35,596 nt of DNA from positions 1-35,596 of the IMG/VR virus record IMGVR_UViG_3300049595_001488; one strand, written 5' to 3'. Source of the stretch: a virus. Below the pieces are notes generated by a model, which had not been told where the DNA came from, did not search any database, and saw only the letters and a list, made by a program, of their open reading frames with translations. This document shows, one piece after another, positions 1-35,596 of the stretch (positions are counted from its first letter, which is position 1; every line of letters starts with the position of its first letter). The translations under genes were made by a program, and so were the position numbers.

Positions 1-127
1 GATGGGATGGTATTGTCAAAATGGGTTGGCATATTCCTGACGCAGTGCATCTTGCCGATGATGCTCATCAAGTAGGCGCAGCATTGTTTATTAACAATTC
101 GGGAATAAATCTGACGTATAACAGCAT
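1..127. repeat. Terminal direct repeat, left copy
   Basis: Bases 1-127 are identical to 35470-35596. An exact overlap of this size at contig ends is what a short-read assembler leaves when it closes a circle. The reading frame of the tail-fibre gene is kept across the join. I therefore read it as an assembly overlap of a circular or circularly permuted genome rather than a true physical terminal repeat, though the latter is not excluded. Confidence 0.9.
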
Positions 128-3537: not shown

Positions 3538-3546
3538 CAGAGACAA

Positions 3547-18674: not shown

Positions 18675-21200
18675 ATGGCGAATATCCTCGTCACGTCTCT
18701 TAACGCCGGGGAGTTGAGTCCCTACATGGATGCCCGTGTGGATGTGGAGAAGTATGCCAGCGGTTGCCGCAGACTGGAGAATATGCAGGTGTTGCCTTAT
18801 GGCGGGGTGTTTCGCCGGGGCGGGACGGAGTATCTGGGCACGGCCAAGCTGGGTAATCGGCGGTGTCGTTTGATCGGGTTTAACTATTCGACCACGACGC
18901 GCTTTGTGCTGGAGGTGGGGCATCAGTATATCCGCTTTTGGAGTAACGGGGTGCAGGTGATGGCCGGGGGCGTGCCGCTGGAGGTGGCCACGCCGTATCT
19001 GGAGGAGCATTTGCGGGAACTGCAATATGTGCAGATTAACGATATTTTATACATTGCGCACGCCAATTACCCGGTGGGCAAGCTTTCGCGCTTGGCGGAT
19101 AATAACTGGACGCATGCGGCGATGAGTTGGCTTTACCCGCCACTGGTGGAGCTTGCGCCGGAGTTTCAAGAATTGCGCTTGAGCAATACGCAGCTAGGCA
19201 GCGGGCGGACTTTGCAAAGCAAATCGGCGTTTTTTAGCACGGCGGATGTGGGCACGGTGTTTGCGCTCAAGTTTCGCAAGGATGCGGCCAATTTGTTTAT
19301 CGAGCAGGCGGTGAACGCGAGTGGGTGGAGCGCGGGCTTGGTGCCGATGTCGGCGGGCGAGGCGTGGGATTTCCAGACTACCGGAACATGGAATGCCACG
19401 GTGGGCATTTACCGGACGGTGCCGGAGGAGACGGCCAAGGGGCTAATCACGATGGCGGTGACGCGCAGCGGGACGGTGGCCACGGTGACGCATACGGCGC
19501 ATGGATACGCGACGGGCGAGGAATTGCAGTTTAACGGGGTGGCACCTTTTACGGTGAACAGTGCCGCCATTACGGTGGTCAATGCCAATACTTACACTTA
19601 TGCGGTGGCCAATAGTGGGGCGACTAGCGGGAACGTGAACGTGGTGAACCTGACGAAAATGGAGTTGGTGCGCCAGTATGATAGCAATGGCGACCGCAAC
19701 ATTGTGGCTACGGGGACGGCGGCGGAGCTTGGGTATTACAAGGTGCGGGTGACTAATTATGTGAGTAACACCAATGCGCGGGCGGTGTTGGAAAGCCGGG
19801 GGATTTTTGAGGAAGGGCTATTCCGCGTGGATACGTTTAATAGCTCGTCGCAAGTGACGGGCACGGTGATCAAGCCGTGCGGACTGGCGACCGGGGCGCG
19901 GTGGAGTGCCACGGCCAAGCAAGATGCGTTTAATGGCAAGTATGGGTATCCGCGCACGGTGGCGGTGCATGAGCAACGGCTATGTTTTTCCGGAACGACG
20001 ATGAAACCGCAGTCGGTTTGGTGCAGCCAGACCGATGATTTTGAGAATTTTGAACTTGGCACGTCGGACGCGGCAGGGATGCAGTTTGATATTGCCGCCA
20101 GCGAGGGCAACCGGATCAGTTGGATGTTTAGCCAAAAGCGGTTGATGATCGGGACGGCGGGCGATGAGTGGACAATCGGCGGGGCCGACAGCGGGCCGAT
20201 GACGGCCAGCAATGTGCAGGTGCAGCGGCAGGCGAGCTTTGGCAGCAAGTATATGCGGGCGGTGCTGCTCAATGACATTTTGCTCTTTGTGCAGCGGCGC
20301 GGGCGCAAGGTGCGGGAGTTGGTCTATAACTTCGACCGGGACGGGTGGGTGGCTCCGGATTTGACCGTGCTTTCGGAGCATATTTCTGACTCGGGGCTGG
20401 AGGAGATGAGTTTTCAGCAGCAGCCGGATGCGGTGCTTTGGGCGGTGCGCAACGATGGCATCTTAATCGGGATGGCGTATGAGCGGGATCAGAACGTGGT
20501 GGCGTGGCATCAGCACAATACGGACGGGGATTTTGAAAGCGTGGCCACGATCTACGGGCTGGATAACGCGGATGATGAGGTGTGGCTGTGTGTGAAGCGG
20601 ACGATCAACGGGCAGGTGGTGCGCTATATCGAGCGTTTCCACCCGCAAGTGCGGACGGCGTTTTTCGAGGAGGATAAGCCGAATTGGTGGTATCTGGATT
20701 GTGCCAAGCGGTATAGCGGGGCGGCAACCACCACGATCACGGGGCTGGGGCATCTGGAGGGCAAGACGGTCGATGTGCTGGCCGATGGTGCGGTGGCGGT
20801 GGCGCGGGTGGTGTCGGGTGGGCAAATCACGCTGGAAAAGCCAGCCAGCACGGTGCTGGTGGGATTGCCGTATGTCTCGCTGGTGCAGCCGATGAAGTTT
20901 GACTTTCAACTGCAAGACGGGCCGACACGGGGGCGTAATAAGCGGATCAACCGGGTGAATGTGAGCCTCTACAAGTCGTTGGGCGGGCAGGTGAGCACGG
21001 ATGATCAGGAATGGCTGTGGCTTTACCCGCGGGACTGGAATGATGCAATGGATGATTCGCCACGGGTTTTCAGCGGGGAAAAGGAAGTGGTGGTGGGGGG
21101 AGACTATTCGACCAATGCGGATTTAAGCCTGCGGCAGACGTTGCCCTATCCCTTCACGATCCGGGCGCTGGTGGTGAAGTTGGATGCCTACGGGGATTGA
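18675..21200 (+). CDS. Tail tubular protein B (nozzle, gp12-like)
   Basis: 841 residues. Opening SLNAGELSPYMDARVDVEKY, then CRRLENMQVLPYGGVFRRGGTEYLG, is the typical start of nozzle proteins of T7- and BPP-1-like podoviruses. Further on: RFVLEVGHQYIRFW, TVAVHEQRLCFSGT and RKVRELVYNFDRDGW, the beta-propeller style strands of the nozzle. An inserted part at about residues 250-350 looks like an Ig-like or Thr/Val-rich beta domain (VTHTAHGYATGEELQF, NANTYTYAVAN). It is the tail tip tube through which DNA leaves. Confidence 0.92.
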   Translation: MANILVTSLNAGELSPYMDARVDVEKYASGCRRLENMQVLPYGGVFRRGGTEYLGTAKLGNRRCRLIGFNYSTTTRFVLEVGHQYIRFWSNGVQVMAGGVPLEVATPYLEEHLRELQYVQINDILYIAHANYPVGKLSRLADNNWTHAAMSWLYPPLVELAPEFQELRLSNTQLGSGRTLQSKSAFFSTADVGTVFALKFRKDAANLFIEQAVNASGWSAGLVPMSAGEAWDFQTTGTWNATVGIYRTVPEETAKGLITMAVTRSGTVATVTHTAHGYATGEELQFNGVAPFTVNSAAITVVNANTYTYAVANSGATSGNVNVVNLTKMELVRQYDSNGDRNIVATGTAAELGYYKVRVTNYVSNTNARAVLESRGIFEEGLFRVDTFNSSSQVTGTVIKPCGLATGARWSATAKQDAFNGKYGYPRTVAVHEQRLCFSGTTMKPQSVWCSQTDDFENFELGTSDAAGMQFDIAASEGNRISWMFSQKRLMIGTAGDEWTIGGADSGPMTASNVQVQRQASFGSKYMRAVLLNDILLFVQRRGRKVRELVYNFDRDGWVAPDLTVLSEHISDSGLEEMSFQQQPDAVLWAVRNDGILIGMAYERDQNVVAWHQHNTDGDFESVATIYGLDNADDEVWLCVKRTINGQVVRYIERFHPQVRTAFFEEDKPNWWYLDCAKRYSGAATTTITGLGHLEGKTVDVLADGAVAVARVVSGGQITLEKPASTVLVGLPYVSLVQPMKFDFQLQDGPTRGRNKRINRVNVSLYKSLGGQVSTDDQEWLWLYPRDWNDAMDDSPRVFSGEKEVVVGGDYSTNADLSLRQTLPYPFTIRALVVKLDAYGD

Positions 21201-21213
21201 CCAATGCCCTACT

Positions 21214-21227
21214 GTTTTGACTAGACC
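21214..21227 (-). promoter_or_regulatory. Dispersed 14-bp motif, copy 10 (reverse)
   Basis: GTTTTGACTAGACC on the plus strand, exact, in the short gap after tail protein B and ending one base before ATG 21229. Confidence 0.8.
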
Positions 21228-21228
21228 A

Positions 21229-21651
21229 ATGGAACCTAAACTTCAACTTCGCATGTTTGATTCGGCTAAGGATTATGACATGGTTGCCGATTGGTGGCGG
21301 GGGCACGGGTGGAATCCGGTGCCGTCTTATTTTTTGCCCAAGCTGGGCGTGGTTGCTTGCTGGATAGAGGGTGAAAAGACCAAAGACACTGCCGCGGCTT
21401 GGCTTTACATGGACAATTCATCCCCGGTCTGTTGGCTGGAATATATGGTGAGTAATCCCGCGATGAACGCGGGTCGCAGCGTCAAGGCGTTGCGCCATTT
21501 GGACACCTTTCTAACCGCTGAGGCGAAGGCAACCGGATATGTCGTGATGATGACCACTTGCAGGCAGGATTCGCTGGTCAAATTTCACGAGAAAAACGGG
21601 TTTCGCAAAACTGACGAGGATGTGACGCACCTTGTCAAAATTCTGAACTGA
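21229..21651 (+). CDS. GNAT-like acetyltransferase domain protein
   Basis: 140 residues from ATG 21229; an earlier frame start at 21184 would translate the motif. Pattern: MFDSAKDYDMVADWWRGHGW at the start, then ACWIEGEKTKDTAAAWLYMDN, RSVKALRHLDTFLTAEAK and a late segment VKFHEKNGFRKTDE, close to the GNAT fold with K-N-G-F near the end. The acetyl-CoA loop is weak. Small GNAT-like proteins are known between tail and core genes of some podoviruses. Target unknown. Confidence 0.65.
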   Translation: MEPKLQLRMFDSAKDYDMVADWWRGHGWNPVPSYFLPKLGVVACWIEGEKTKDTAAAWLYMDNSSPVCWLEYMVSNPAMNAGRSVKALRHLDTFLTAEAKATGYVVMMTTCRQDSLVKFHEKNGFRKTDEDVTHLVKILN

Positions 21652-21652
21652 G

Positions 21653-22372
21653 ATGGCCGTCACCACCACAACTGCAGTGATTGCCGGAGCAGCTATTGCC
21701 GCGAGCTTAGCCAGCGCGGGCCTTGCCTACTACGGCCAGCAGCAGCAGGCGGCGGCGGCGGAGCGCATGGCGCAATACAATTATGAGGTGCAGCGGCAGC
21801 AGAATGATATGCAGGCGCAGATGGCCAAGATGGTGGCTGAGCAGCAGCATCAAGCGGGATTGCAAAATGCGGCGGTGATGGAGCGCGAGGCGCAGCGGGT
21901 GGAGATGGAGGCGCGGGAGCGGGCCAAGCGGATGCGCGAGGAGAATGAGCGGATGTTGGGGATGCAGCGGTCGCGGTATGCGGCGGCGGGTGTGACCAGT
22001 GAGGGGACGCCTTTGGTGGTGATGGCGGAGACGGCGGGGATGCTGGAGCAAGCCGTGGGTGATGAGCTTTACAAGGCGGATATGGAGCGCATGGCATGGA
22101 TGCGCAAGGGCGAGGTGGAACGCTGGCAGGCGGGTTACTCGCTGATCGACAAGGCGGCGGCGGAGTATGATTTGGCCAGTGCGAGTGTGCGGGCGTATCC
22201 GCTTTTGATGGAGGGGCAGAATATGGCGCAGAATTTGCGGACTTCGAGCTATGGCACGCTCTTGGAAGGAGTTTCGGGGGCGGCGGGAACTTATTACAAC
22301 ATGCCGCGAACCACGGCAGGACAAATGACGCCGCAGGTGCGACGGGCGACGGCGGTAAATCGCGCAGGTTAA
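21653..22372 (+). CDS. Internal virion protein (gp14-like)
   Basis: 239 residues. A hydrophobic N-terminal part (about residues 6-25, VIAGAAIAASLASAGLAYYG) is followed by a long Gln/Glu/Arg-rich coiled coil and RSRYAAAGVTSEGTPLVVMAETA, a pattern found in T7 gp14-type internal core proteins. It would be ejected into the host outer membrane as part of the DNA channel. It lies one base after the GNAT gene and one base before the next core gene. Confidence 0.8.
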   Translation: MAVTTTTAVIAGAAIAASLASAGLAYYGQQQQAAAAERMAQYNYEVQRQQNDMQAQMAKMVAEQQHQAGLQNAAVMEREAQRVEMEARERAKRMREENERMLGMQRSRYAAAGVTSEGTPLVVMAETAGMLEQAVGDELYKADMERMAWMRKGEVERWQAGYSLIDKAAAEYDLASASVRAYPLLMEGQNMAQNLRTSSYGTLLEGVSGAAGTYYNMPRTTAGQMTPQVRRATAVNRAG

Positions 22373-22373
22373 T

Positions 22374-24308
22374 ATGGCGAACATTCCTCTAGCACAGATA
22401 CCTAATGCGCCGCAGGCTGGGAGCACGGCGGTGGCTTTGCCCGTGGGGGCAATTCGTGCGCCGCGGGTGGAGCAGATGCCTGTGGTGTCGTTTGCCGCGT
22501 TTGATGGCGGTGGTCGCGGGATGCAGGCGCTGGGGCAGAGTATGGCGCGGGCCAATGCGGTAACGACGGATTTTGCCGAGCAGATGGCGAGGGCTAATGA
22601 TGAGATGAACTTTGCCGCGGCGGATCGTTTGCTGACGGAGAATGTGGCGGCTTTCGAGGTGGAATCTTCGCGGTTGCCGGAAAGCGAGCATGTGACGCTG
22701 TGGCAGGAGAAGTATTTGCCGAAGGTGCAGGAGCAGGTGAGTGGCATGGGGCTGACTCCGGTGGGCCGGGCACGGCTGGATGCGTGGATGGTGCAGAAGG
22801 GTTCGGAAACCAGCGCGGCGGTTTATACGAGCGCCAACAAGCGACTCATTGAGCGGGGGCGCATGGAGATTCAGAATTACGTGGAGCGGGCCAATAATGA
22901 GGGCCGCTATGAGGATGCGATGGGCGGGATTGCCCGTGGCGTTTCCGCGGGGCTTTTTAGCCAAGAGGAAGGCGGCAAGCTGGAGAATGATTTGGTGGAA
23001 AAGCGCAAGGTGGACACGCTCACGCAAGCCATACAGCAAAACCCGGCTTTGTGGCGCAAGGAGTTGCGGCAGTATCAGGCGGAGGGGAAAAACCCGCACA
23101 ATCTGAGGCCGGAGCAGGTGTTGCAGTTTCGCCGGATGGCGGAATCAACGCATGGGCAACTGGTGCAGGATTTGGGCAACGAGATGCTGACGCGATTGGA
23201 AACGCAAAGCCCGGCCATCACCAACGAGCAAATCGAGGAGTTTTTTACCCGACCGGATGTGCAAGCGCCGCGGGAGGTGATTCAGAGCTTTAAGAAATAC
23301 CGTAGTCTGGCCTATGCGCAGACGCCGGAGGGCCAAGCGGAGAAGGCGGATAAATACGGGAAGCTGTGGGGGCAAATCTTTGGTTACAATGCGGAGGGGG
23401 ATTTGAACTCCAAAGACCCGGAAAAAACGATGACGGAGTATTACAGCTTGCTCGCTCAGGTGAATGCGACGGCTCCGGAGGGCGAGCGCAAGCCGTTTAT
23501 GGACAAGCTTAACGAGATGGTGAGTAATGCCCGTGAGGGCAAGCGCAGTCGCCGCGATGAGATTGCCAAGGGGCTGGTGGATAAGGTGGAGAAGTTTGCC
23601 GAGTGGGGCCAGCTAGGGGATGACGGGGGTTGGCGGGTGATGAAGAAGGATGGCAAGACGGAGCGTGTGCCCAAAGACCCGCAAAAGTATCTCAATGTGC
23701 AGCAGAAGAAGATCGAGGCGATTAACGCGGTGCGCGAGATGCTGCGCACGAATCCGGATTTGACCGAAGGGCAGGCGATGGAGCGGTTTAAGGGGATTAT
23801 GGATGACAAGTTGGAGGCGGGTTCGCTGTTCCAAAAGGAGGTGGATGATCGCGGGTTTTTCGGGACGATTGGGGCGTGGTTTGGCGCGATGGACGCGGGG
23901 GAGAGCAAGTCGCGCAATGAGGGCATGTGGCATGTGGGCGATGGCAAGGCGGTGGGCAAGGTGACAAGCTATAACTGGAAGGGTGATCCGTATAGTGACA
24001 GCAATTCACGGAATTTGATCGGGGCGTGGAATAATCGCCTGACGGAGAGCAGTCTTGCGGTGTCGCCGGATGTGGAGGCACGGTTTAAGCAGGCAGGAAT
24101 TGGCGAAGGGGATGCGGTGGAATTGACGCTGGCGGACGGGACAACGGTGGTGCGGACGTGGGATGACCGGACGATGCAGGATGAGCAGGCGCGGCGCAAA
24201 TTTGGCAAGCCTCTAAGGGGGCGTTTTGATTTTCACCATCCGTATGACGGGCCTTTTGAGAAGGACGGCATGGCGGTGGTCAGTTTCCGTAAAGCGCCAA
24301 CCGCATGA
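22374..24308 (+). CDS. Internal virion protein (gp15-like)
   Basis: 644 residues, mainly helical and charged, no signal peptide. Its place between the gp14-like and the giant gene, its size and the start (FDGGGRGMQALGQSMARA, then ANDEMNFAAADRLL) suit a T7 gp15-like core protein that spans the periplasm during ejection. The C-terminal 170 residues hold beta-type stretches (VEARFKQAGIGEGDAVEL, LADGTTVVRTWD). Similarity to gp15 itself is too low to see by eye; the call rests on gene order. ATGA overlap with the giant gene. Confidence 0.7.
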   Translation: MANIPLAQIPNAPQAGSTAVALPVGAIRAPRVEQMPVVSFAAFDGGGRGMQALGQSMARANAVTTDFAEQMARANDEMNFAAADRLLTENVAAFEVESSRLPESEHVTLWQEKYLPKVQEQVSGMGLTPVGRARLDAWMVQKGSETSAAVYTSANKRLIERGRMEIQNYVERANNEGRYEDAMGGIARGVSAGLFSQEEGGKLENDLVEKRKVDTLTQAIQQNPALWRKELRQYQAEGKNPHNLRPEQVLQFRRMAESTHGQLVQDLGNEMLTRLETQSPAITNEQIEEFFTRPDVQAPREVIQSFKKYRSLAYAQTPEGQAEKADKYGKLWGQIFGYNAEGDLNSKDPEKTMTEYYSLLAQVNATAPEGERKPFMDKLNEMVSNAREGKRSRRDEIAKGLVDKVEKFAEWGQLGDDGGWRVMKKDGKTERVPKDPQKYLNVQQKKIEAINAVREMLRTNPDLTEGQAMERFKGIMDDKLEAGSLFQKEVDDRGFFGTIGAWFGAMDAGESKSRNEGMWHVGDGKAVGKVTSYNWKGDPYSDSNSRNLIGAWNNRLTESSLAVSPDVEARFKQAGIGEGDAVELTLADGTTVVRTWDDRTMQDEQARRKFGKPLRGRFDFHHPYDGPFEKDGMAVVSFRKAPTA

Positions 24309-27300
24309 GTATTAAATTAGCCGATATACCTAACAATAACGAAATGGAGCCTTTGCCTCCCGTGCAACCGTTGGATGCTACGGCTCCGATGGATGATGAG
24401 CATTGGAACAAGATTTTTACCGACCAAGAGTATTTTGACGGGATTGCCAAGAGTCGCGGGGTAACGGAGGCGATGCGGACAAGTTTGCACGGTGAGGATT
24501 ACCCGTATCGGCAGGCGATGATGGGTTATCTATCGGCCAGCCGGAACGTGCCGATGGAGGATGTGCGCAAGATTTACGATGAGGAGAAAGACGGGTTTGC
24601 GCAGCGCGTGCTGGGCAAACCCACGGCGAGCAGCCGGGAGTTGTTTGACTGGCAAAAGCAGCAGTTTGCGCGGGCCAATGAACGTAATGCGGCGGCGCGG
24701 ACGATGATGGAGAATGTGATCAAGCGTAGCCTAGAGGATGCGCTGACGGGCGGCAGCAATGACCATACGCGGGCGGTGACGGAGGATTTGACCAGTTACG
24801 GCGAGATGTTTAACGAGGCGGAGCAGTTGGATTTGCGGAAGAAGGCCGATGAGTTGGATATACAAGTGCGCCGGGCGCAAGCGATGGTGAGCGAGGATGC
24901 GCGGTGGCTCTTTGACGCATTGCGCCAAAATACCGGGGCCGTGGATCGCGGGGTGGCGGCATGGCAGGGGGGGCAGGCGGTGCCGGAAATGGAGGAGGTG
25001 GCCAAGCGGTTTGCCACGTTGCCGGAGCAGCAGCGCAAGGCGGTGTATGAGTTGGTGGCGGGCTTTGGGCAGATTGCCAAGGTGGACAAGGGGTTCTGGT
25101 ATCAGATGGCGGAAAGCCTCGGACGCGGGGTTAGTGATGTGGCGGAGGTGACGCCGCGGGTGCTGGGAGAAAATGCGCTGGAGGCGCAACTGGCGCAACT
25201 GGAGGATGCCAAGCGACCTGTGTTTTTGGTGCCGGGCCGCACGGGGGAAGTGCGGGTGGAAAGGTTTGACCTGCAAGGCACCGGGCCAGCGTCGCCGGAG
25301 GAGCGGGCGCAAGCGGCGGAGCGGATACGGGAAAAGCTGGCGGTGCGCCAAGTGCAGCGGGAGTTGCGGGATTTGGCGGAACGGGTGGTTGATCCCATCA
25401 AAACGGTGACAAACCTGCCGGAGATTTTGGAGGAGGGGCTTTACGGGGCGGCTCGCAGCTTGCCCTACACGGCGGTGGCGGCGGTTCCTTACGTGGGCAT
25501 GCCCGCGGTGGCGACGGCGCTGTATGCGCAGAATTATGACCGTTTGCGCTTGGAGCATCCGGAATTGCCCGCGGGGAAGGTCGCGCTGGTGGCGGCGGCA
25601 TCGGCTCCGATTGAAGCGGCGCTGGAACGTTTGCAGGTGAAGTTGATCACGGGGCGGTTGCCGTGGCTGGGAGGTCTAGTCAAAAAAATGGCGCATCCGA
25701 ACCAGCGCAACATAACCCGGATCATGCTGGGCAGCGGGGGCATCTTGCTGGAGCAGAATGCGCAAGAGACGGTGCAGGAGTTGACGTTCCCGGTGGCGCG
25801 GACGGTGGCGGCGGCGCTGGATGAGGATATGCCGGGCTTTGACTGGCAGGAAAAGATTGAGGGGATGCCGCGGGAATTGGCGGTGCAGTTTGTGGCGCTT
25901 TTGCCGTTGTCGCTGGTGGGCATGGGGGCGTTGACGGTGCGGGAGTTGCGCCGGGGCGGGGACTATATCAAGGACAAGGCGAATCTGGAAAAGGTGGGGC
26001 TTTCGCCGGAGCAGGTGGATCGGGTGCTGGGGGCGGAGACGCTGGAGGAGGCGGAGGCGATTTACCAAGAGGAGTATAACCGCCGTGATCCGGAGCGGGC
26101 GAAGGCCGCAGCCATGAAGTTGATCGAGGAGATGGCCAATACGCCGAATCTCTCGCAGAAGCCGGAGATGCCGACCGTGGAGCGGCAGGGGGCGGATTAT
26201 GTGGTGCGCAACCGCGAGGGGGTAGAGATGTTGCGCACGCAAGACCCGGATGCGGCGACGTATGAATTTAACAAGCTGATGCAGAGCCGGGAGCAGGCGT
26301 TTTACGAAGCGCAGGTGGCGCTGGTGGAGATGTTGCGCAAGGCGAAGGAGGCGCGGGGGCTGACGCCGGATGTTTCGGAGATTGAGTTGGTGGCCAAGGA
26401 GGTGATTGAGCCTTACGCGACGATGACGCCGGAGGAGTTGGAGCAGCGGCGCAAGCAGTATGAACTGGAGTATGGCACGGAGGCGGCGGGTGCTTTGGAA
26501 GTGGTGGGGGTGAATGTGGCGCAGATGCGCGATGGGGTGTTCCGCGATGTGTCGAAGATCGTGCGGGGCAGTGATCCGCTGGTGGTGGTGGAAGAAGTGG
26601 TGGAGGGGGAATTGAAGCGGGCGTGGCAGGATGGGCGCTTTAGCCGGGAGGATATGATCGGGTGGATTCGCCAATATGAGCGGGCCAGCGGGGAAAACAT
26701 TTTGACCGGGGAAGGTGATGCCGATGTGATCGAGGCCACGTCTTCGCTAGGTGTGGCGTATTTTATGGGGCAGTCGCGGCGGGATTCGCTGCCGGACAAG
26801 TTGCGGGCTTTCTTTGAATGGCTCTCGCAGTATTTGCGGGCGATTATGGCGCGGGCTGTGCGGCTAGAGCAGGCGTTGGCGGAGGGGGAAGTGGATCAAC
26901 GCTTTGAGGCGTTTTTAGCGCAATCGCTGGGCATGGATTTGGATGCGATTTTGGAGAAGCAGGCGAAGGCAGCATTAAGCGGGATTTTGACGGGGACGGA
27001 GGGGGAAAGCGCGTTGGCGCAACCGCAGTTGACTGATCCTAGCGGGGTGGCGCGGGGCAAGGAGTTTTCGCGGGTGAATGAACAAAATGTGCAGGCGCTT
27101 AATGCGTATCTGGATGGCTTGGAGGAAGGTTTTTACCCGGTGATGAACGGCGACGGGGAGCAGACGTATGTGGTGAAAGTCACGCGGCGCAAGGATGGCA
27201 GCAAGCGGGTGGAGTTGTGGACGGCGGACGGCAAGGAATTGGTGGGGGATCGTCGCTCGGTTGTCACGGAGTTGAATTATGCGCCGTCGCAAGATGGGCA

Positions 27301-30300
27301 GGGCAATACGGTGTGGACAAAAGCGGAGTTGGGGGCCGGACAAAAGCGGATTTATGAGGAACTGACGCCGGAGCAGGAGGAGGAGCTAGCGTGGCAGGCG
27401 ATGCAGGATCAGCAGGAGGAGGATTTGGACGGGGCAAAGGGAAGTGGAGATGTGGAGCTTTTTACGGCGATTGCCTCTGCGGGGGGATTGCCTTCACCGG
27501 GCACGAAGAATGCGCGGCAGTATAGCGGGGAGTTGCGCACGCTGCGGGAGACGTTGCGCGTGGGGCGGGATATTCAAGTCAAAGGGGCGTTTAATCTTTT
27601 TCGCACAGATGCGCCGGATTTGGATGCGCTGACCAAGGAGTTGCGACGGTCTGGCTTTGTGGATGTGCAGACGCCGGATGATTTGTTTGAGTTGATTGAT
27701 CGTCGCATCCGCGGCGGAAAGCCGATCTATGGCTATGAGGGCAAGGGTTGGGCGGAGGTGTATGAGGGGCAGACGTGGGCGGTGCGGGAGAATCGAGATA
27801 ATTTCTCGCTTGTTGGCTTAGATGCTCAGGCGTATTTTGATTTTGCCAATGTCCCGCAAAGCAAACAGCAAGCTGGTCAGCAAGCCGTCGATGCCGCGGC
27901 GCAAGCCAGCGTCGAACCCTACGAGGCCGATTTGCTATCCTCCCGCGGAGGAGTGGATGGGAGCGGGGAGTTGCGAAGCGCCCGAGAACGTCAAGCGGCT
28001 GCTTATCAGGCACTCTTAGGCGGAGACGCAAATTTCGTCGCCAAGGCTATCCGTGAGGGTGTGCCGTTGTCGCGGCTGATGCTGGGCTTTATCGGGCGGG
28101 AGCCTGTGTCGTTTAATATCCGCGGTGCTATCATCGAAAATCCGCGTGATCTGGCGTTGTATAACTTGGCTCATCGGACGCCGTTTTTTGAAAGCCTTAA
28201 GATCGTGGTGGTGGATACGGCTAACCAAGTGATTGCTTCGCAAGTGGTGAGCACGGGCACGGTGAATGAGTCGCTGGCGCATCCGCGGGACATTTTGGCG
28301 GTGGTGGAGACGGCGCGGGCTAATCATCCCGGCGTGGCGCTGGGGGGCTTTATGGTGATGCACAATCACCCATCGGGAAATCCTAGCCCAAGCAGTGCAG
28401 ACAAAAAATTGACGGAGCGGCTGGCGGCGGCAGGAGACGAAATCGGCGTGCCGTTGATTGATCACGTCGTCACCAATGGCGAGTCGTTTTATAGCTTCCG
28501 AGAAAATCGGGAAATTACGTATTTGGGCGCAGCAAAAAATGATCCGGCAGCAGGGAGAGCTAATTTGCCCGTGCTGGCGAGGCCGGAGGGTGACATTGCG
28601 CCGGGAGCAATGGCGGAGTGGGAAGTCTTGCCTGCTAGCGTAGGCCAGCAACTAAGCCTCTATAATAACGACATACTCAAGGGCGTGCAGCAAACGCTGC
28701 AAACGGCAGACCCGAATATGATCCATGTGATTAACGTGGATACTCGCCACGGTATTATTAGTGTGGATCGTTACCCGCTGGGCACGAAGGCGAGCGAGGC
28801 GGTCAAGCGCAGTATCACGCAAGGCACGTATGGGGTGTTTGTGTCGCTGCCGTCGATGACTCTGGCCGATGCTGGAGTGATCAAACGCGATTTTCTTGGG
28901 GTGTATCAACAGACTTACAGTATCCCGCTGCTCGATGTGGCGGCTTACGGGCAGGAGAGTTTTAGGTCTTTGGGTTTGCTGGAAGAAGCCGATGCGCCTT
29001 ATAGCGCGGCGCGGGCGGTGGCCTCGGAGCAGCGGGCGGTGGATGGGGCGTATCCGGTGGCCGGGCCTAGCTATGCGGTGCGTCTGGTATCGGTGCATAA
29101 GTTAAGCGAGGAAAACTTGGCGTTTGCCGAGCAGATGGGGGGCTTGGCGGTGCCGAGTGTGGCGGTGACGAAGGTGGGCAATGTGGTGGATGGTTTTGGC
29201 AAGGTGGCGCTAATTGGCGGGAGGGAGCTTGGTGATCCGGAGGCAAACCCGGTGTTTGATGCGGATGCTTACACCTCGCGCTTCCCAAGGCCGGAATACA
29301 AGAAGGTGAAGCAGGCGGTGGCGCAACGGGTGGTCAATAAGTTGCGTCCGTATGAGCAGAAGTTTGGCGATGGTCGCGGCATGTCGCTGCAAGAGGTGTG
29401 GGATAATGCGGTGAATAGGCCGCAACCGGATGAGACGGTGAATAAGCTATTGCGGAGCAATATGGCCAAGGCCGCGTATTTGGGGCTGGTGGAGGGCGTG
29501 GAGGTGGAACCGCAAATGCGCGAGGTGCCGCAACGCTGGGGGTTGATGGGCACGCGGGCGATGCAGGAGTATGTGGCGCAAGGGGGCGGTTTTAACCTCA
29601 ATTACGATGATGCGGCAGGCTTGCGCCGTCTGGCGGAGGTGGTGATGGCGGCGGTGGAGGAGCAGGTGGCCGGGAAGTCGCCGGAGGTGCAGAGGATGCT
29701 GCGCGAGGCGATGCGGGCGAATGTCAATGAGGATGGCACGTTTGCTTTCGGTCGGCAGTTGCCGCTGGAGCAGGATGCCCGGAATTACGGCAAGATGGAG
29801 GTGGATGCGGAGGCGACGGGCAAGGTGCTTGATGAGGCGTTGCGCGGCAAGGAGGCGGCGTTTGATCGCTGGGTGAATGAGACGATTCGCGGGATGTATG
29901 AGGCTCCACGGATCAAGGTGAATGGAAGGTGGGAGCCTTATACGCTGGAAAATATCGTGCGGGTGATGACGGCGGGCCGGATCGTGGGGGCGGAGCAGAC
30001 GATGACTTTTGGCGAGGGCCAGCTACGGGCGGCATCTTCGCGGCGCTTTGGCTCGGTGCAGGAGATGAAGAATGTGGCGGAGGAGGGCATTGCCACGGAA
30101 GCGGAGGTGCAGGCGCGGCGGGACGTGGTGAATGCACGGCTGGGGGCATGGCGCGAGGCGCTGATGGGCTACTACAAGTGGCAAAGCTCTTGGGATGCGC
30201 TGGATAATTCGATGATGGCGATGGCGGGTTATCTCAAGGCGCAAAGCAGCACGGAGACGGCGATGCGGCGGGCGTTGCTGAGCAAGGATTTTGTGGGGGT

Positions 30301-33300
30301 GCCTGCGGAGGTTGTGCGGGAGGGGATGGAGATTGCGGCGGAGTTTCGCAATGTCCCGGTGCCGTATTTTGAGAGCAAACCGCAACGGGTCGTGCGGCTG
30401 GGTGAGTTTAAGGCGGCGGTGGTGGCGGGCGATGTGTCGCCGGAGACGGTGAATATCCTCAACCGCCACGGGATTGAGGTCTATACGGTGGACAGCGCGA
30501 GCACGGCGGCGGATGATGATGTGCAGGCGGCGATGGAAAAGGCGGGTGATGGGGTGTCGTTTGCGGTGCGCCCAAGCGGTGCGGGGGCTGGTGAAAATGT
30601 GGCGGTGTTGGATGTGGAGCCGAAATTAACGGGGATGTCGAAGCGAGATGCTGCGGAGACGATTTTACCCGTGTTGCGCGGGTATCAAAAACTTGATGGC
30701 GATGCTTTGCCTTTCAATAAGGATTTGGGCCAAAGGGTGCGGTTTTCGGGCAAGACTACGGGGAAACTGGTGTCTTATGCGTCGCATACGCTGGAGGATA
30801 TGGAGTTGGCGTTTATCCTGCCGATGTTGATTGAAAACGCTGTGTTGGTGGAGAGCAGGGCGGACAGATATGGAAATCCTGAAATCCGCAGTGTGAAGAT
30901 TTTGGCATCCGTTGCCCGAGTGAATGGCAAGGTGTATGCAGCAAAGTTGACGGTGTTTGACCGTCAAGATGGTGCGGTTTTGTATGACGTGACTGGAAAA
31001 GAAATGAGGCTTGCGCCTAGTGTCGTTCAGGTTCCCGAAGGAACTTCCACAACGCTCGCAAGCCTCGGTGCAAATGTGGACGATCTTGTGAGGGCGGTCA
31101 AGGGGGATTCTGAGGTGTCTCGGGCGGTGCGTTCGCAGCGGTATTACGATGAGGTGGAGCGGGCGTTGGTGGCGTTGGACAATGATCCGGTGTATCGGCG
31201 GGGCCGGGTGGGTTCGGCGTTGAAGCGGTTTAAGAAGATTCGGGATCAGTTTAGCCGGAAGGATGCGGAGCCGTTGTCGCAGATGGAGGCGATTGCCTTT
31301 ATGGAGGCGCTTATCAGCATACTGCCTCCACAGATGCAGGGGCGCGTGGGCGGTCGGGTGCGGATCGCGCAATTTAAGACGGCGCAAGGGCGGCGTAATT
31401 ATATCCTCAACCGGATTGCCAAGGTGGATGAGGTGTTGGAGGAGTATTTGCGGGAGGAATACAATGCCGATGCGGTGAGGCTCTTTGCACGGGCGAGGCC
31501 GCAACGGGATGAGGCCGGGCAGAAGCCGAAGGGCAAGCTGGGGTATTCGGTGCATGAGCTTTTTAAGACGTTGCAGGAGGCGACGGAGTGGACGCCGGAG
31601 GAGGCCGAAGCGCATGTGGCCAAGCTGGAGAAGCGGATGGGCGCGGAGGAAATTTTGGCGGAGGAGGAGGCGCATATTGCGCTGGAGTCGCAGCTTGTGC
31701 CGCTGTTTGCCGATTGGCTCCATGCTGATGCGCAGCGTCGGCAGGACGCGGTGATGCTGGGGCAAGAGGTGTGGACGCGGGCGTATCAGGCGGAGCGGGC
31801 ACGGGTGGAGCGGATGCGCCAAGAACGGGAGGCGGCACGGGAGGAGTTGGCGCGGGCCGCTGGCTCGGAAGGCGATGCCAAAGAACGCTATGAGCGTCTG
31901 GCGCGGGAAAACGGGCTTTCGGCGAAGTGGGAGGGGGCGATGCTCAACTTGCTGAATTTTGACCAAGTGATTAGCTATGTCTTTGGCGAAAAATCGGAGG
32001 TGGTGCGCAAGCTGGTGACGGCGCAGCGCAAGGCGGATAATGCCAAGGCGGACGGGATTGCGTCGCGCTCGGAGGATTGGGCGCAGTTTGTGAGCCGTCT
32101 CGGGGGCGGGGCGATGGCGGGGCAGACGTTGGTCTATGAGCTTTCGCGCACGAATGAGACGGTGCGTGGCATCAAGTTTAGCCAGTTGCAACTGGTGTCT
32201 ATCACGATGATGTGGAAGCAGGCCAAGGGGCGCGAGCACATGCTAGGCAAGCTGGATGAGTCGGGCGAGCCGACGGGCAAGTGGCATTACAATCAGGCGT
32301 TTGTCGATGAGGCGGAGGCGAAGCTGAGGCCGGAGGCGGTGGCAATCCGCGAGTATTTGCTGAAAAAGTATGATGAGGAGTATGATGCGCTCAATGCGGT
32401 GTATCGCCGGGTCTATGGGCTGAATCTGCCGAAGGAGCAGTTTTATAGCCCGCTGGTGGTCAACCCGGTAATGGCGACCAAGGAGGGGATGGGGGTTGAT
32501 CCTCTAACGGGCGCGGTGTATGCGGAGGGGTCGCGGAGTCCGGGGGCGTTGCGCAATCGTGGGGCGGGGGTGGCGGAGCCGATTTTCCGCGATGCGTTGC
32601 AGACTTATTTTGCCCACATGCTGCAAATGGAGCATTGGAAGGCGTATGCGGTGCTCAATGGGGAGATGACGGCGGTGATGGGGCACCGGGACATTCGCAA
32701 TGTGGTGGAGGCCAAGGCCGGGAGGCAGGCGGCAACGGTGGTTTCCAAGTGGCTGCAATACTTCAATGAGGGCGGCAGCAAGGATGCGGCGGCGCATTTG
32801 GCGCTCAATCAGGTGTTTAACAATGCGCTCAACCGCGCCTCGGCGATGGCTCTTTTCGGGCGTATCAGCACGCTGGTTCTGCAATCAACGCAGATGGGAG
32901 CGGCGGCGGCGAAGATGCCGCTGGGTTCGTATCTCAAGCGATTGTCGATGCTGCTGACGGGGCAGATGGGTTGGGGCGAGTCGTTGCGGTCGCCTTATGT
33001 GCAACGGCGTATTGCAGAGATGCCGCCTCAAGTGCAAATCGCCATGCAGGGGCTACTGGCGACCAAGCCGAATAAGGTGCGGGAGGCGGCGCGAAAGCTG
33101 GGCCGATTGATCTCCGGATTTGACGGGCTATTTACCGCGGGAACGTATGCGATGGTCTATGACTATCAACGGGGCTTGGCTCTGAAAAACGGGATGACGC
33201 GGCAGGAGGCGGAGGCGTTTGCACGGGAGGAGGCGGAGCGGATCACTGATGAGGTGGCGCAACCGACACGGGCGGGGGCACGGTCAATCTGGGAGCTTAA

Positions 33301-33868
33301 TACGACAAATCCGCTAGGACGGATGGCGTGGGCGTTTGGCTCGGAGGCGCGGAAGAATCTGGCTTTGGTGCTGTTTTCGGCCAGCAGGCGACCGAAAGGA
33401 GAGCTTGGCCGGGCGTTGCTTTTCGTGATGGTGTTTAACGGGCTGCTGGCCATGGTGATTCGCAATGCGTTCCGTGATCTCAAGGATGGGGACGATGATG
33501 AGCTTTTCGATGAGAAAAATTGGGGCTGGGGCCGGATGGCGGCAATGTGGGTGAGTGAACCGCTTTATGGTTTCCCGGTGCTCGGGGAGTCGGCGGAGGG
33601 AGCGATTTTTGCGGCGGCTGGGGAATACCAGCCTAAGAGCGGGATGCTGGACGTGAAACAAGCGGTGCCTGCCTTGATGCGCTTGCCGGAGACGGCGGGC
33701 GAGGTGCTGACGGGCGAGGCGGATTGGCGGCAGGTGGTGCGCGATGGCAACCGTTTGCTGATGGCCGGGGGGCTGATGAGTTCGACTTTGGCGGCGGCGG
33801 CGTCGCTGTCGAATCTAGCGCGGGATGTTTTTGAAATCGGGAAAAGCCGGGTGGGAAATGATGAATAA
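24305..33868 (+). CDS. Giant polyvalent virion protein with JAB metalloprotease
   Basis: 3187 residues, in the place of the T7 gp16 core protein. In order: a helical start; hydrophobic stretches at about 375-440 and 525-546; a helical part; a small domain at about 1050-1180 (GTKNARQYSGELRTLRE, GWAEVYEG); a RadC/JAB domain at about 1245-1410 with the zinc motif His1353-x-His1355-x10-Asp1366 (HNHPSGNPSPSSAD) after GTVNESLAHPRD; a domain at about 1590-1650 (GGLAVPSVAVTK, FGKVALIGG); an LPD3-like domain at about 2160-2235 (FILPMLIENAVLVE, YAAKLTVFD); and a long helical C-terminus with a hydrophobic span near 3030-3050. It is probably ejected with the DNA, helping form the channel and delivering enzyme domains that act on host proteins. 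Domain names are by motif only. Confidence 0.85.
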   Translation: MSIKLADIPNNNEMEPLPPVQPLDATAPMDDEHWNKIFTDQEYFDGIAKSRGVTEAMRTSLHGEDYPYRQAMMGYLSASRNVPMEDVRKIYDEEKDGFAQRVLGKPTASSRELFDWQKQQFARANERNAAARTMMENVIKRSLEDALTGGSNDHTRAVTEDLTSYGEMFNEAEQLDLRKKADELDIQVRRAQAMVSEDARWLFDALRQNTGAVDRGVAAWQGGQAVPEMEEVAKRFATLPEQQRKAVYELVAGFGQIAKVDKGFWYQMAESLGRGVSDVAEVTPRVLGENALEAQLAQLEDAKRPVFLVPGRTGEVRVERFDLQGTGPASPEERAQAAERIREKLAVRQVQRELRDLAERVVDPIKTVTNLPEILEEGLYGAARSLPYTAVAAVPYVGMPAVATALYAQNYDRLRLEHPELPAGKVALVAAASAPIEAALERLQVKLITGRLPWLGGLVKKMAHPNQRNITRIMLGSGGILLEQNAQETVQELTFPVARTVAAALDEDMPGFDWQEKIEGMPRELAVQFVALLPLSLVGMGALTVRELRRGGDYIKDKANLEKVGLSPEQVDRVLGAETLEEAEAIYQEEYNRRDPERAKAAAMKLIEEMANTPNLSQKPEMPTVERQGADYVVRNREGVEMLRTQDPDAATYEFNKLMQSREQAFYEAQVALVEMLRKAKEARGLTPDVSEIELVAKEVIEPYATMTPEELEQRRKQYELEYGTEAAGALEVVGVNVAQMRDGVFRDVSKIVRGSDPLVVVEEVVEGELKRAWQDGRFSREDMIGWIRQYERASGENILTGEGDADVIEATSSLGVAYFMGQSRRDSLPDKLRAFFEWLSQYLRAIMARAVRLEQALAEGEVDQRFEAFLAQSLGMDLDAILEKQAKAALSGILTGTEGESALAQPQLTDPSGVARGKEFSRVNEQNVQALNAYLDGLEEGFYPVMNGDGEQTYVVKVTRRKDGSKRVELWTADGKELVGDRRSVVTELNYAPSQDGQGNTVWTKAELGAGQKRIYEELTPEQEEELAWQAMQDQQEEDLDGAKGSGDVELFTAIASAGGLPSPGTKNARQYSGELRTLRETLRVGRDIQVKGAFNLFRTDAPDLDALTKELRRSGFVDVQTPDDLFELIDRRIRGGKPIYGYEGKGWAEVYEGQTWAVRENRDNFSLVGLDAQAYFDFANVPQSKQQAGQQAVDAAAQASVEPYEADLLSSRGGVDGSGELRSARERQAAAYQALLGGDANFVAKAIREGVPLSRLMLGFIGREPVSFNIRGAIIENPRDLALYNLAHRTPFFESLKIVVVDTANQVIASQVVSTGTVNESLAHPRDILAVVETARANHPGVALGGFMVMHNHPSGNPSPSSADKKLTERLAAAGDEIGVPLIDHVVTNGESFYSFRENREITYLGAAKNDPAAGRANLPVLARPEGDIAPGAMAEWEVLPASVGQQLSLYNNDILKGVQQTLQTADPNMIHVINVDTRHGIISVDRYPLGTKASEAVKRSITQGTYGVFVSLPSMTLADAGVIKRDFLGVYQQTYSIPLLDVAAYGQESFRSLGLLEEADAPYSAARAVASEQRAVDGAYPVAGPSYAVRLVSVHKLSEENLAFAEQMGGLAVPSVAVTKVGNVVDGFGKVALIGGRELGDPEANPVFDADAYTSRFPRPEYKKVKQAVAQRVVNKLRPYEQKFGDGRGMSLQEVWDNAVNRPQPDETVNKLLRSNMAKAAYLGLVEGVEVEPQMREVPQRWGLMGTRAMQEYVAQGGGFNLNYDDAAGLRRLAEVVMAAVEEQVAGKSPEVQRMLREAMRANVNEDGTFAFGRQLPLEQDARNYGKMEVDAEATGKVLDEALRGKEAAFDRWVNETIRGMYEAPRIKVNGRWEPYTLENIVRVMTAGRIVGAEQTMTFGEGQLRAASSRRFGSVQEMKNVAEEGIATEAEVQARRDVVNARLGAWREALMGYYKWQSSWDALDNSMMAMAGYLKAQSSTETAMRRALLSKDFVGVPAEVVREGMEIAAEFRNVPVPYFESKPQRVVRLGEFKAAVVAGDVSPETVNILNRHGIEVYTVDSASTAADDDVQAAMEKAGDGVSFAVRPSGAGAGENVAVLDVEPKLTGMSKRDAAETILPVLRGYQKLDGDALPFNKDLGQRVRFSGKTTGKLVSYASHTLEDMELAFILPMLIENAVLVESRADRYGNPEIRSVKILASVARVNGKVYAAKLTVFDRQDGAVLYDVTGKEMRLAPSVVQVPEGTSTTLASLGANVDDLVRAVKGDSEVSRAVRSQRYYDEVERALVALDNDPVYRRGRVGSALKRFKKIRDQFSRKDAEPLSQMEAIAFMEALISILPPQMQGRVGGRVRIAQFKTAQGRRNYILNRIAKVDEVLEEYLREEYNADAVRLFARARPQRDEAGQKPKGKLGYSVHELFKTLQEATEWTPEEAEAHVAKLEKRMGAEEILAEEEAHIALESQLVPLFADWLHADAQRRQDAVMLGQEVWTRAYQAERARVERMRQEREAAREELARAAGSEGDAKERYERLARENGLSAKWEGAMLNLLNFDQVISYVFGEKSEVVRKLVTAQRKADNAKADGIASRSEDWAQFVSRLGGGAMAGQTLVYELSRTNETVRGIKFSQLQLVSITMMWKQAKGREHMLGKLDESGEPTGKWHYNQAFVDEAEAKLRPEAVAIREYLLKKYDEEYDALNAVYRRVYGLNLPKEQFYSPLVVNPVMATKEGMGVDPLTGAVYAEGSRSPGALRNRGAGVAEPIFRDALQTYFAHMLQMEHWKAYAVLNGEMTAVMGHRDIRNVVEAKAGRQAATVVSKWLQYFNEGGSKDAAAHLALNQVFNNALNRASAMALFGRISTLVLQSTQMGAAAAKMPLGSYLKRLSMLLTGQMGWGESLRSPYVQRRIAEMPPQVQIAMQGLLATKPNKVREAARKLGRLISGFDGLFTAGTYAMVYDYQRGLALKNGMTRQEAEAFAREEAERITDEVAQPTRAGARSIWELNTTNPLGRMAWAFGSEARKNLALVLFSASRRPKGELGRALLFVMVFNGLLAMVIRNAFRDLKDGDDDELFDEKNWGWGRMAAMWVSEPLYGFPVLGESAEGAIFAAAGEYQPKSGMLDVKQAVPALMRLPETAGEVLTGEADWRQVVRDGNRLLMAGGLMSSTLAAAASLSNLARDVFEIGKSRVGNDE
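25673..25686 (+). promoter_or_regulatory. Dispersed 14-bp motif, copy 11
   Basis: GGTCTAGTCAAAAA, last base differs, deep inside the giant gene and in frame as Gly-Leu-Val-Lys-Lys. Confidence 0.6.
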
Positions 33869-33920: not shown

Positions 33921-35596
33921 ATGGCCATTCAAGCTGATACTTCACGAGTGCAATACACGGGCAATGCCAGCACGACGCAGGCATATCCTGTGCCGTTTCC
34001 GTTTTTTAGCGCGACGCACTTGCGTTGCATTGTGACCACCAACGGCGTGGATGCGCCGATGAATTTTGTGGCCACGGGCGAGGGGAATCCGAACGGCGGG
34101 AGCTTGACCACGGTGACGGCGGTTCCGGCAACGAGCACGGTGACGATTTACCGCGAGGTGCCCGCGACGCAGACCACTTCCTATGTCGAAGGTGGGGATT
34201 TTCCCGCAGCCAGCCATGAGCGGGCCTTGGATAAGCTGACTATGCTGGTGCAGCAAGTAATTCGTTTAGGTCAAAGAACATTGCGCTTGCCCGAGAGTCA
34301 AAATAGCCCGAATGAAATTCCGTCACCAACGGCAGGCACTCAAACACTAACCGCAACAGATGGCCGGTTGGGGTGGTCGCCCACAGTCCCGGTTCCAAGT
34401 GTTCCCAGCAATGCTGGAACGTTTGTATTTGGCACGACTGGACAAAACATTTTGCCGACTTGGCAACCCTTACCACAATTTCAAAGCCAAGACATTACAA
34501 ACGCAGTACTAGATGCCGCCGATGGAGAATATGTTTCACAGCAAAGATATTTTAGCCCACACGCATTGCAGCGGACTTTAAGCATTCTCCACCGAATGGA
34601 GACGAAACAGCAGAGTGGAACATTAGTGTTTTTGGGTGTTGGCGACTCAATGGCCCACCGAAAACCAACATGGATAAGCAGATATTTGTTCAACAGATAT
34701 GAAATTAAAGGGGCGTGCTTAAAAGGGTTGGTCACGAGGTCGTTTGGGGATGTTGATGCTACAACGTTTGATCAGACAAAACCCGCTGAATTTAATTATT
34801 GGGAGAATGGCGAAATTGCAAAAGTCAGAACAAACGGCAGTGTTCAATATGGACTTTTGGACGGATTAGGCACAAGTGCTGGGTTTATACTATCCAACGA
34901 AATTACAATTTATTCTGTTGCGCGTTCTGGCGGAGGCACATTCAAAGTACAATACAGTACCGACGGTACTAATTGGACTGATGTGCCCGAGTTAAACAAT
35001 GTCAGCACATCTGCTGGAAGTGCTATTGGGCTAGTATCAAAAGCAACAGTGGCCACGGCAGGTTTTTATCGGTGGCGCGTTTTAGGCTTGTCTGGCGAAT
35101 CATGGATTATCGGGGCGAAGGCAATAAATACCCTAAACAATGGAGTTGTATTTGGCTTAATAACAAGAGGAGGAATGACCATAGCGCAAAGCAATACGGT
35201 GTCTTCAGCCATATTCAATCCTATTATAGCAGATATTAGTCCAGACCTCGTTATGTGGGAGCAGAAGGATGATCCCAGCGATTATGTAAATGGACTACCA
35301 ACTTATCTTGACAGATGGGCAAATGCGGGAGTGCAACCCGACTGGGTATTAGTGGGCACAAATGATTCTATTGTTAATGATGTAGGTTCAGCGACAGTAC
35401 GGGCCACAATAAAAAGCGTCGCAGATGCAAGAAAATTAGGGTATTTCGACTTTAATGGCCTCGTCGGCGGATGGGATGGTATTGTCAAAATGGGTTGGCA
35501 TATTCCTGACGCAGTGCATCTTGCCGATGATGCTCATCAAGTAGGCGCAGCATTGTTTATTAACAATTCGGGAATAAATCTGACGTATAACAGCAT
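33921..35596 (+). CDS. Tail fibre with SGNH esterase domain, N-terminal part
   Basis: Starts at ATG 33921 and is open to the window end; it continues in the same frame from base 1 to 881. The last 127 bases are the copy of 1-127. The first 130 residues are a T7 gp17-like attachment domain (SRVQYTGNASTTQAYPVPF, TTSYVEGGDFPA, ALDKLTMLVQQVIRL) that binds the tail. From about residue 225 comes an SGNH hydrolase: block I GVGDSMAH with Ser243, block III GTND with Asn481, and block V D530-x-x-H533 in the other part. About residues 300-390 look like an inserted beta domain. The attachment part is GC-rich and the rest AT-rich, a sign of domain exchange. The esterase probably deacylates host surface sugars. 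Confidence 0.9.
   Translation, partial: MAIQADTSRVQYTGNASTTQAYPVPFPFFSATHLRCIVTTNGVDAPMNFVATGEGNPNGGSLTTVTAVPATSTVTIYREVPATQTTSYVEGGDFPAASHERALDKLTMLVQQVIRLGQRTLRLPESQNSPNEIPSPTAGTQTLTATDGRLGWSPTVPVPSVPSNAGTFVFGTTGQNILPTWQPLPQFQSQDITNAVLDAADGEYVSQQRYFSPHALQRTLSILHRMETKQQSGTLVFLGVGDSMAHRKPTWISRYLFNRYEIKGACLKGLVTRSFGDVDATTFDQTKPAEFNYWENGEIAKVRTNGSVQYGLLDGLGTSAGFILSNEITIYSVARSGGGTFKVQYSTDGTNWTDVPELNNVSTSAGSAIGLVSKATVATAGFYRWRVLGLSGESWIIGAKAINTLNNGVVFGLITRGGMTIAQSNTVSSAIFNPIIADISPDLVMWEQKDDPSDYVNGLPTYLDRWANAGVQPDWVLVGTNDSIVNDVGSATVRATIKSVADARKLGYFDFNGLVGGWDGIVKMGWHIPDAVHLADDAHQVGAALFINNSGINLTYNS
35470..35596. repeat. Terminal direct repeat, right copy
   Basis: Identical to 1-127. Unique genome length without it is 35,469 bases. 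Confidence 0.9.

What the first reader, a model, noticed from the sequence alone, without database searches (positions are those of the whole stretch)
24305..33868. One-quarter of the genome encodes a single ejected multi-domain protein
A 3187-codon frame in the gp16 position combines hydrophobic channel-like parts with a full JAB zinc motif (HNHPSGNPSPSSAD), a domain with GGLAVPS and an LPD3-like domain known from polyvalent proteins of phages and conjugative elements. It may carry several effectors into the cell with the DNA, such as a protease that removes ubiquitin-like tags or cuts the polyprotein itself.
Basis: partly seen in the sequence, partly recalled or inferred. Interest (0 to 1): 0.68.

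Follow-up and report, generated by a model that had tools for sequence, protein, structure and literature searches.

The report
Giant cysteine-free injected phage effector protein
A quarter of this small temperate phage's genome encodes one enormous, cysteine-free protein that is most likely shot into the bacterium with the DNA, and close relatives show that it is a fixed chassis into which enzyme modules such as the RadC/JAB one are spliced or lost in frame.

Summary
The 3187-codon ORF at 24305-33868 is real. It lies in the gp16 position of a temperate podovirus (circular contig). Its domains are a RadC-type JAB domain with an intact JAMM site (E1296, H1353, H1355, S1364, D1366), a PBECR5 nuclease-like core and an LPD3 domain. 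This makes it a 'polyvalent protein' of the BPP-1 Bbp10 / Carin-1 gp32 class: its C-terminus matches theirs (hhalign 97%).

(1) It has no cysteine; relatives have 14 in 95,522 residues where 717 are expected, and T7 gp15/gp16, P22 gp7/gp20/gp16 and N4 vRNAP have none. This was known for N4-like vRNAP and fits ejection. (2) The RadC region (aa ~1041-1574) is a cassette: a 95-98% identical relative lacks exactly these 534 residues in frame, four other giants carry it, and its GC3 is deviant. (3) The cassette holds an active-looking JAB followed by a probable degenerate one.

A self-cleaving or deubiquitinating protease is not supported: the cassette is dispensable, co-occurs with the usual HExxH peptidase in relatives, and RadC is the nucleic-acid-linked JAB clade. 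The 2017 survey reported RadC only in conjugative-element polyvalent proteins, so this is a new variant of a known kind.

The parts
24305..33868 (+). giant polyvalent ejection protein, 3187 aa, zero Cys
24305..27424 (+). N-terminal chassis (aa 1-1040); 95.6% identical to L016; aa ~560-900 shared with L017/L026
27425..29026 (+). RadC cassette (aa 1041-1574): absent in frame from near-identical L016; GC3 0.62 against 0.74-0.76 in the chassis
   Evidence: module borders in L066-L069:
27443..27679 (+). mini-domain (aa 1047-1125) resembling a segment at the same place in L017/L026
   Evidence: by eye on printed sequences
28139..28507 (+). RadC-type JAB domain (aa 1279-1401); JAMM residues E1296, H1353, H1355, S1364, D1366
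28361..28402 (+). HNHPSGNPSPSSAD zinc motif (aa 1353-1366)
28625..29014 (+). probable degenerate second JAB (aa 1441-1570), HNHPSG replaced by an LSLPSM-like sequence
   Evidence: hhalign 85%, E 6e-6; same beta-beta-alpha-beta-alpha-beta order, low confidence
29066..30505 (+). PBECR5 core, really ~480 aa (aa 1588-2067); invariant H1598, S1618, D1654, F2022, E2023, K2025
30716..30985 (+). LPD3 domain (aa 2138-2227), in the slot where most relatives carry an HExxH peptidase; GC3 0.62
31529..33607 (+). C-terminal chassis (aa 2409-3101) shared with BPP-1 Bbp10, Carin-1 gp32, Ab9, vir555
   Evidence: hhalign 97.3%, E 1.8e-11; shuffles below 1%
33404..33460 (+). hydrophobic segment (aa 3034-3052), at a position from the C-end (154) similar to that in 16 of 17 relatives (134-169)
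22374..24308 (+). gp15-position protein, 644 aa, zero Cys
21653..22372 (+). internal virion protein (phrog_418), 239 aa, zero Cys

Best explanation
It is the gp16-position ejection protein of a temperate podovirus, of the polyvalent Bbp10/gp32 class. It is packaged in the head, unfolds and leaves through the tail with the DNA. Its N- and C-terminal chassis helps build the passage through the envelope, and its middle carries enzyme modules into the cell: a RadC-type JAB (with a probable pseudo-JAB), a PBECR5 RNase-like domain and LPD3. The middle modules are cassettes gained and lost in frame between phages, so the phage changes its injected effectors without changing the delivery part. The JAB most likely acts on nucleic acid or nucleotides of the host or of incoming DNA as a counter-defence or take-over step. 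Shown here: architecture, homology, cassette presence/absence, cysteine depletion. Inferred: packaging, ejection, unfolding, and every enzyme activity.
For: Gene order. Pfam RadC, PBECR5, LPD3. Shared C-terminal module, hhalign 97%, with a hydrophobic stretch in a similar place. PBECR5 in 30 of 33 complete giants with swappable ART, LPD22, LPD38, kinase, SLT, GNAT, helicase/methylase, RadC. In-frame cassette: window against L016; L017/L026 differ by ~142 aa with ART-like sequence; L019/L035 and L059/PS25B swap middles. RadC cassette in L066-L069. Deviant GC3. Cysteine: 14 per 95,522 aa in giants against 600 per 79,901 in other ORFs of the same contigs; 0 in T7 gp15/gp16, P22 gp7/gp20/gp16, N4 vRNAP; 18 of 31 ejection-position proteins of 450 aa or more lack Cys against 1 of 31 others, P = 3e-6. 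Lack of Cys in injected vRNAP and its proposed reason are published (PMC2784036, PMC3715699, PMC3915230).
Against: No virion proteomics for this phage. Not all injected proteins lack Cys: T4 Alt has 3 per 682 and P1 DarB 9 per 2255 (that both are injected is from the literature). A scaffold protein and N4's capsid protein also lack Cys, so the sign is not specific. C-terminal homology to T7 gp16 or N4 vRNAP was not found. The enzyme role of RadC is unproven anywhere in the papers read.
Confidence: 0.75

Rival explanations
1. The JAB domain is the processing protease: it cuts the polyprotein after entry and replaces the HExxH peptidase that this protein lost.
For: The window has no HExxH, while most relatives carry one ~530-550 aa after the PBECR5 start, where the window has LPD3. 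The JAMM residues are intact.
Against: L066, L067 and L069 carry both JAB and HExxH, and so does L038. L017, L026, L029, L040 and L043 have no HExxH and no RadC. L016 lost the JAB cleanly, although its own C-terminal part is not held.
Confidence: 0.08
2. The JAB is an isopeptidase that removes ubiquitin-like tags placed by bacterial defences (Bil, CBASS Cap2), so the phage injects a counter-defence.
For: JAMM site intact. Foldseek also finds Pyrococcus JAMM1 bound to SAMP2 (E 1e-3) and Rpn11/Rpn8-type pairs more weakly. An active JAB beside an inactive one recalls Rpn11/Rpn8.
Against: RadC 2qlc is far the best match (TM 0.87, E 3e-10). Iyer et al. 2017 argue that RadC lacks the groove for the ubiquitin tail. 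No link to a host with such a system; the host is unknown.
Confidence: 0.12
3. The protein stays in the particle (tail or head structure) or acts late in lysis and is not injected; the domains are relics.
For: BPP-1 Bbp10-like proteins have been called a lysin in a genome paper (OANV1 gp16; PMC9239159). No proteomic proof.
Against: Conserved catalytic residues across relatives; cysteine depletion like that of proven ejected proteins; fast turnover of middle modules but not of the ends.
Confidence: 0.07

Closest known systems
Polyvalent proteins (Iyer et al. 2017, PMC5512222)
   Same: Several unrelated domains from their catalogue (RadC, PBECR, LPD3) in one giant late protein next to virion genes
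   Different: They report RadC only in conjugative-element polyvalent proteins; here it is in a phage-type one, with a probable second inactive JAB, and the zincin peptidase they call central is absent
Bordetella phage BPP-1 Bbp10, Cobetia phage Carin-1 gp32, Acinetobacter phage Ab9, OANV1 gp16 class
   Same: Gene position, giant size, C-terminal module (OANV1 only by its published similarity to Bbp10); PBECR5 core shared with Carin-1 and Ab9
   Different: Bbp10, gp32 and the Ab9 protein carry HExxH; none of the three has RadC or LPD3 as far as searched
T7 gp16 (internal core protein D)
   Same: Last of the internal virion genes, no cysteine, hydrophobic stretches
   Different: No detectable sequence homology of the C-terminus (hhalign 4%); 2.4 times longer; carries polyvalent domains
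N4 virion RNA polymerase gp50
   Same: Similar size (3500 aa), zero Cys, third gene of the ejection module, itself classed as polyvalent by Iyer et al.
   Different: No RNA polymerase domain here; no detectable homology
Solo RadC proteins (PDB 2qlc; plasmid and phage JAB proteins)
   Same: JAMM residues and fold
   Different: Solo, 1-2 Cys per protein, no pseudo-JAB seen; here cysteine-free inside a giant chassis

Membership tests
Phage-type polyvalent protein | two or more domains of disparate activity in one polypeptide | tested here: met
   RadC, PBECR5 and LPD3 above Pfam gathering scores
Phage-type polyvalent protein | encoded among late virion genes | tested here: met
Phage-type polyvalent protein | transferred into the cell with the DNA | not testable with these tools
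   needs virion proteomics and translocation assay
Phage-type polyvalent protein | zincin (HExxH) peptidase, common but not universal | tested here: not met
   no HExxH in 3187 aa; not obligatory in the definition
BPP-1 Bbp10 / Carin-1 gp32 ejection-protein class | homologous C-terminal module | tested here: met
   hhalign 97.3%, E 1.8e-11 over 640 columns; shuffled controls below 1%
BPP-1 Bbp10 / Carin-1 gp32 ejection-protein class | same place in the internal-virion-protein operon | tested here: met
T7 gp16 family | detectable sequence homology to gp16 | tested here: not met
   C-terminal profile against T7 gp16, 4%
T7 gp16 family | lytic transglycosylase domain | tested here: not met
   no SLT match by Pfam
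RadC clade of JAB domains | RadC profile match and JAMM residues E, HxH, S, D | tested here: met
   (domain match; whole-protein equivalog cut-off not reached, as expected for one domain)
JAB deubiquitinase / isopeptidase | groove for a ubiquitin-like tail and peptidase activity | not tested
   literature argues against the groove for RadC
PBECR5 / BECR RNase | conserved His and Ser/Thr on a small alpha/beta core | tested here: inconclusive
   H1598 and S1618 invariant in 33 sequences; strands at both ends of the 480-aa model flank a long helical part, but no PDB fold match at E 1e-3

The most novel reading that the evidence does not exclude
Podovirus ejection proteins of this class are an exchangeable injection chassis: constant ends that cross the envelope, and a middle slot in which whole enzyme cassettes (RadC-JAB plus pseudo-JAB, ART, LPD3, kinase, helicase/methylase) are spliced in or out in frame and purged of cysteine. 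In this phage the cassette would deliver a JAB/pseudo-JAB pair that undoes a ubiquitin-like or nucleotide-based defence at the moment of entry. If so, cysteine absence plus gene position could be used to list injected effectors from sequence alone.
Probability: 0.15. Interest if true: 0.85.

Novelty: new variant of a known kind. Interest (0 to 1): 0.52.

Why it matters
If right, one gene position in many short-tailed phages is a replaceable effector slot on a delivery protein, and near-identical phages differing by one cassette are natural knock-outs for finding what each injected enzyme does. The strong loss of cysteine, stated in print for N4-like virion RNA polymerases, extends here to the internal proteins of T7 (gp15, gp16) and P22, the lambda tape-measure protein, crAss001 giant proteins (5 Cys in 6102 aa) and some 35 giant polyvalent proteins, giving a cheap sequence test for proteins that cross the envelope with the DNA. 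It also puts RadC, a common domain of unknown activity, in a setting where its role can be tested during infection.

Tried and rejected
Whole-protein and single-sequence searches for relatives in IMG/VR gave nothing or only the near-identical contig; DNA search of phages found nothing, and the N-terminal half matched no phage by tblastn. E. coli genomes: no match. 'JAB replaces the lost HExxH peptidase' was considered and rejected: L066, L067, L069 and L038 have both and several relatives have neither. Homology of the C-terminus to T7 gp16 and N4 vRNAP: not found. A first attempt to align the two JAB halves with two sequences was negative; with five to eight sequences it reached 85%. Structure of the RadC cassette is only moderate (pLDDT 54 overall, 70-82 over most of the first JAB), so the pseudo-JAB rests on order of elements and profile alignment. 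The PBECR5 core model is good (pLDDT 93) but matches no solved structure, so its RNase fold could not be confirmed. Papers linking cysteine absence to ejection were found only for N4-like vRNAP; the library is incomplete.

Full report
Observation. The contig has a 127-bp terminal repeat and so closes as a circle of about 35.5 kb; the ORF is 27% of it. The phage carries a tyrosine integrase (2332-3546, minus), RecT, exonuclease VIII and RusA genes, so it looks temperate. The head-tail genes run portal, scaffold, capsid, tubA, tubB, a GNAT-like gene, internal virion protein (phrog_418), a 644-aa gene, the giant, then the tail fibre whose gene runs across the contig ends. The same order is seen in BPP-1, BcepC6B, Carin-1, Ab9 and vir555, with the giant at the place of T7 gp16.

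Domains. Pfam finds RadC-like JAB (aa 1279-1401), PBECR5 (1594-1755) and LPD3 (2138-2227), all above the gathering scores; NCBIfam and the PDB agree on RadC. The JAMM residues are E1296, H1353, H1355, S1364 and D1366; they line up with solo RadC proteins of plasmids and a phage. The GGLAVPS motif belongs to PBECR5. An alignment of 33 relatives shows the PBECR5 unit is about 480 aa long, with H1598, S1618, D1654, F2022, E2023 and K2025 invariant. AlphaFold gives it pLDDT 93: strands at both ends of the unit, a long helical part between. It matches other giant phage proteins but no solved structure at E 1e-3, so its RNase nature remains a prediction of Iyer et al. 2017.

Relatives. A PBECR5 profile search of IMG/VR gave 50 loci, 33 complete giants with three named phages added being scanned with Pfam: PBECR5 in 30, ART-PolyVal in 13, LPD22 in 12, LPD38 in 3, and single cases of RadC, ddrB-ParB, kinase, SLT, GNAT, and restriction-type helicase/methylase matches. 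Most carry an HExxH peptidase motif about 530-550 aa after the PBECR5 start; the window does not and has LPD3 there. The window's C-terminus (aa 2409-3101) aligns with the C-terminal profile of 17 giants including BPP-1 Bbp10 and Carin-1 gp32 (hhalign 97.3%, E 1.8e-11; shuffles below 1%). The window's hydrophobic stretch lies 154 residues from the end, within the 134-169 seen in 16 of those 17 (vir555 differs at 251).

The RadC module is a cassette. Contig L016 matches the window at 94-97% in DNA over most of 12 kb, but lacks window positions ~27425-29025, exactly 534 codons; the protein is 95.6% identical before and 98.0% after the gap and stays in frame. A profile of the module found four further giants, L066-L069. 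The matching part begins near aa 1030 (L066, L067) or 1163 (L068, L069) and ends at aa 1568-1587 in all, the place of the L016 break (1574). These four have no PBECR5 motif, so the cassette has moved between chassis. Its GC3 is 0.62 against 0.74-0.76 for most of the chassis; a circular-shift test gives 0.005 for the RadC segment and 0.07 for the LPD3 segment. The same pattern recurs: L017 and L026 (91% and 77% identical flanks) differ by about 142 aa with ART-like sequence, and L019/L035 and L059/PS25B keep their ends and exchange the middle. A segment of L017/L026 resembles window aa 1047-1125 (by eye), which suggests that L016 lost the module.

A second, degenerate JAB. Residues ~1441-1570 follow the order of the first domain. 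With five to eight sequences per side the two halves align by hhalign at 85% (E 6e-6), HNHPSG facing LSLPSM-like sequence; a two-sequence attempt had failed. The AlphaFold model shows the same order of strands and helices but is weak there. Foldseek puts RadC 2qlc first (TM 0.87) and JAMM isopeptidases far behind. I treat the pseudo-JAB as likely, not proven.

Cysteine. The protein has none in 3187 residues, nor do the two genes before it. In 35 loci the giants have 14 Cys in 95,522 residues, against 600 in 79,901 for other ORFs of the same contigs, where 717 would be expected; the gene just upstream is Cys-free in nearly all. T7 gp15/gp16, P22 gp7/gp20/gp16, N4 vRNAP (3500 aa), lambda H and T4 gp29 have none; four crAss001 giant or cargo-region proteins have 0 to 3 each. 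Of 31 ejection-position proteins of 450 aa or more in thirteen named phages 18 have no Cys, against 1 of 31 others (Fisher P = 3e-6). T4 Alt (3) and P1 DarB (9) are exceptions. For N4-like vRNAP the absence and its likely reason, passage through the tail and an oxidising periplasm, are in print (PMC2784036, PMC3715699, PMC3915230). I found no paper that extends it to this class, in an incomplete library.

Interpretation. The best reading is an ejected polyvalent protein with a fixed delivery chassis and exchangeable effector cassettes. Ejection is inferred from position, kinship and cysteine depletion. The JAB as a self-cleaving protease is unlikely: L066, L067 and L069 carry JAB and HExxH together, L038 likewise, several relatives have neither, and L016 has lost the module. 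A deubiquitinase-like role is not excluded, but RadC is a different JAB clade and Iyer et al. argue that it lacks the ubiquitin groove and probably acts on nucleic acid or nucleotides. [quoted passage not shown] the window, L038 and L066-L069 are phage-borne cases.

Novelty and score. The kind is known; the phage-borne RadC cassette with a probable pseudo-JAB, the in-frame natural deletion and the breadth of cysteine loss are new to me and to the papers read. Interest 0.52.

Noticed in passing
window 21184-21651 and L016 3879-4272: The GNAT-like gene between tubB and the internal virion protein falls in the one other stretch where near-identical L016 does not align (window 21297-21705): it looks replaced there.
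   Followed up: partly
L017 aa ~1171-1313 against L026: In-frame presence/absence of an ART-like domain ('KAWFGDSKVVDAQGKPLVVYHGT') between two otherwise near-identical giants: a second natural cassette difference.
   Followed up: partly
window 29066-30505: PBECR5 is a ~480-aa unit, twice the Pfam model's match, with strands at both ends around a long helical part; confident model (pLDDT 93), no solved structure like it.
   Followed up: partly
L014/L072 (N4), L015 (T7), L071 (P22), L075 (lambda), L079 (crAss001): Cysteine is absent or nearly absent from the ejected or tape-measure proteins of unrelated phages while their neighbours have 0.5-2%; T4 Alt and P1 DarB do not follow.
   Followed up: partly
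L015 gp16 (T7) against BcepC6B gp17 group: Weak profile similarity (hhalign 38%) between the C-terminal part of T7 gp16 and the stand-alone last internal virion protein of BcepC6B, Ab31, phiV10.
   Followed up: no
window 15897-16637: A metallophosphoesterase gene lies between the scaffold and capsid genes.
   Followed up: no
window 1-127 and 35470-35596: Exact 127-bp terminal repeat; the tail-fibre gene runs across it, so the contig is a closed circle.
   Followed up: yes
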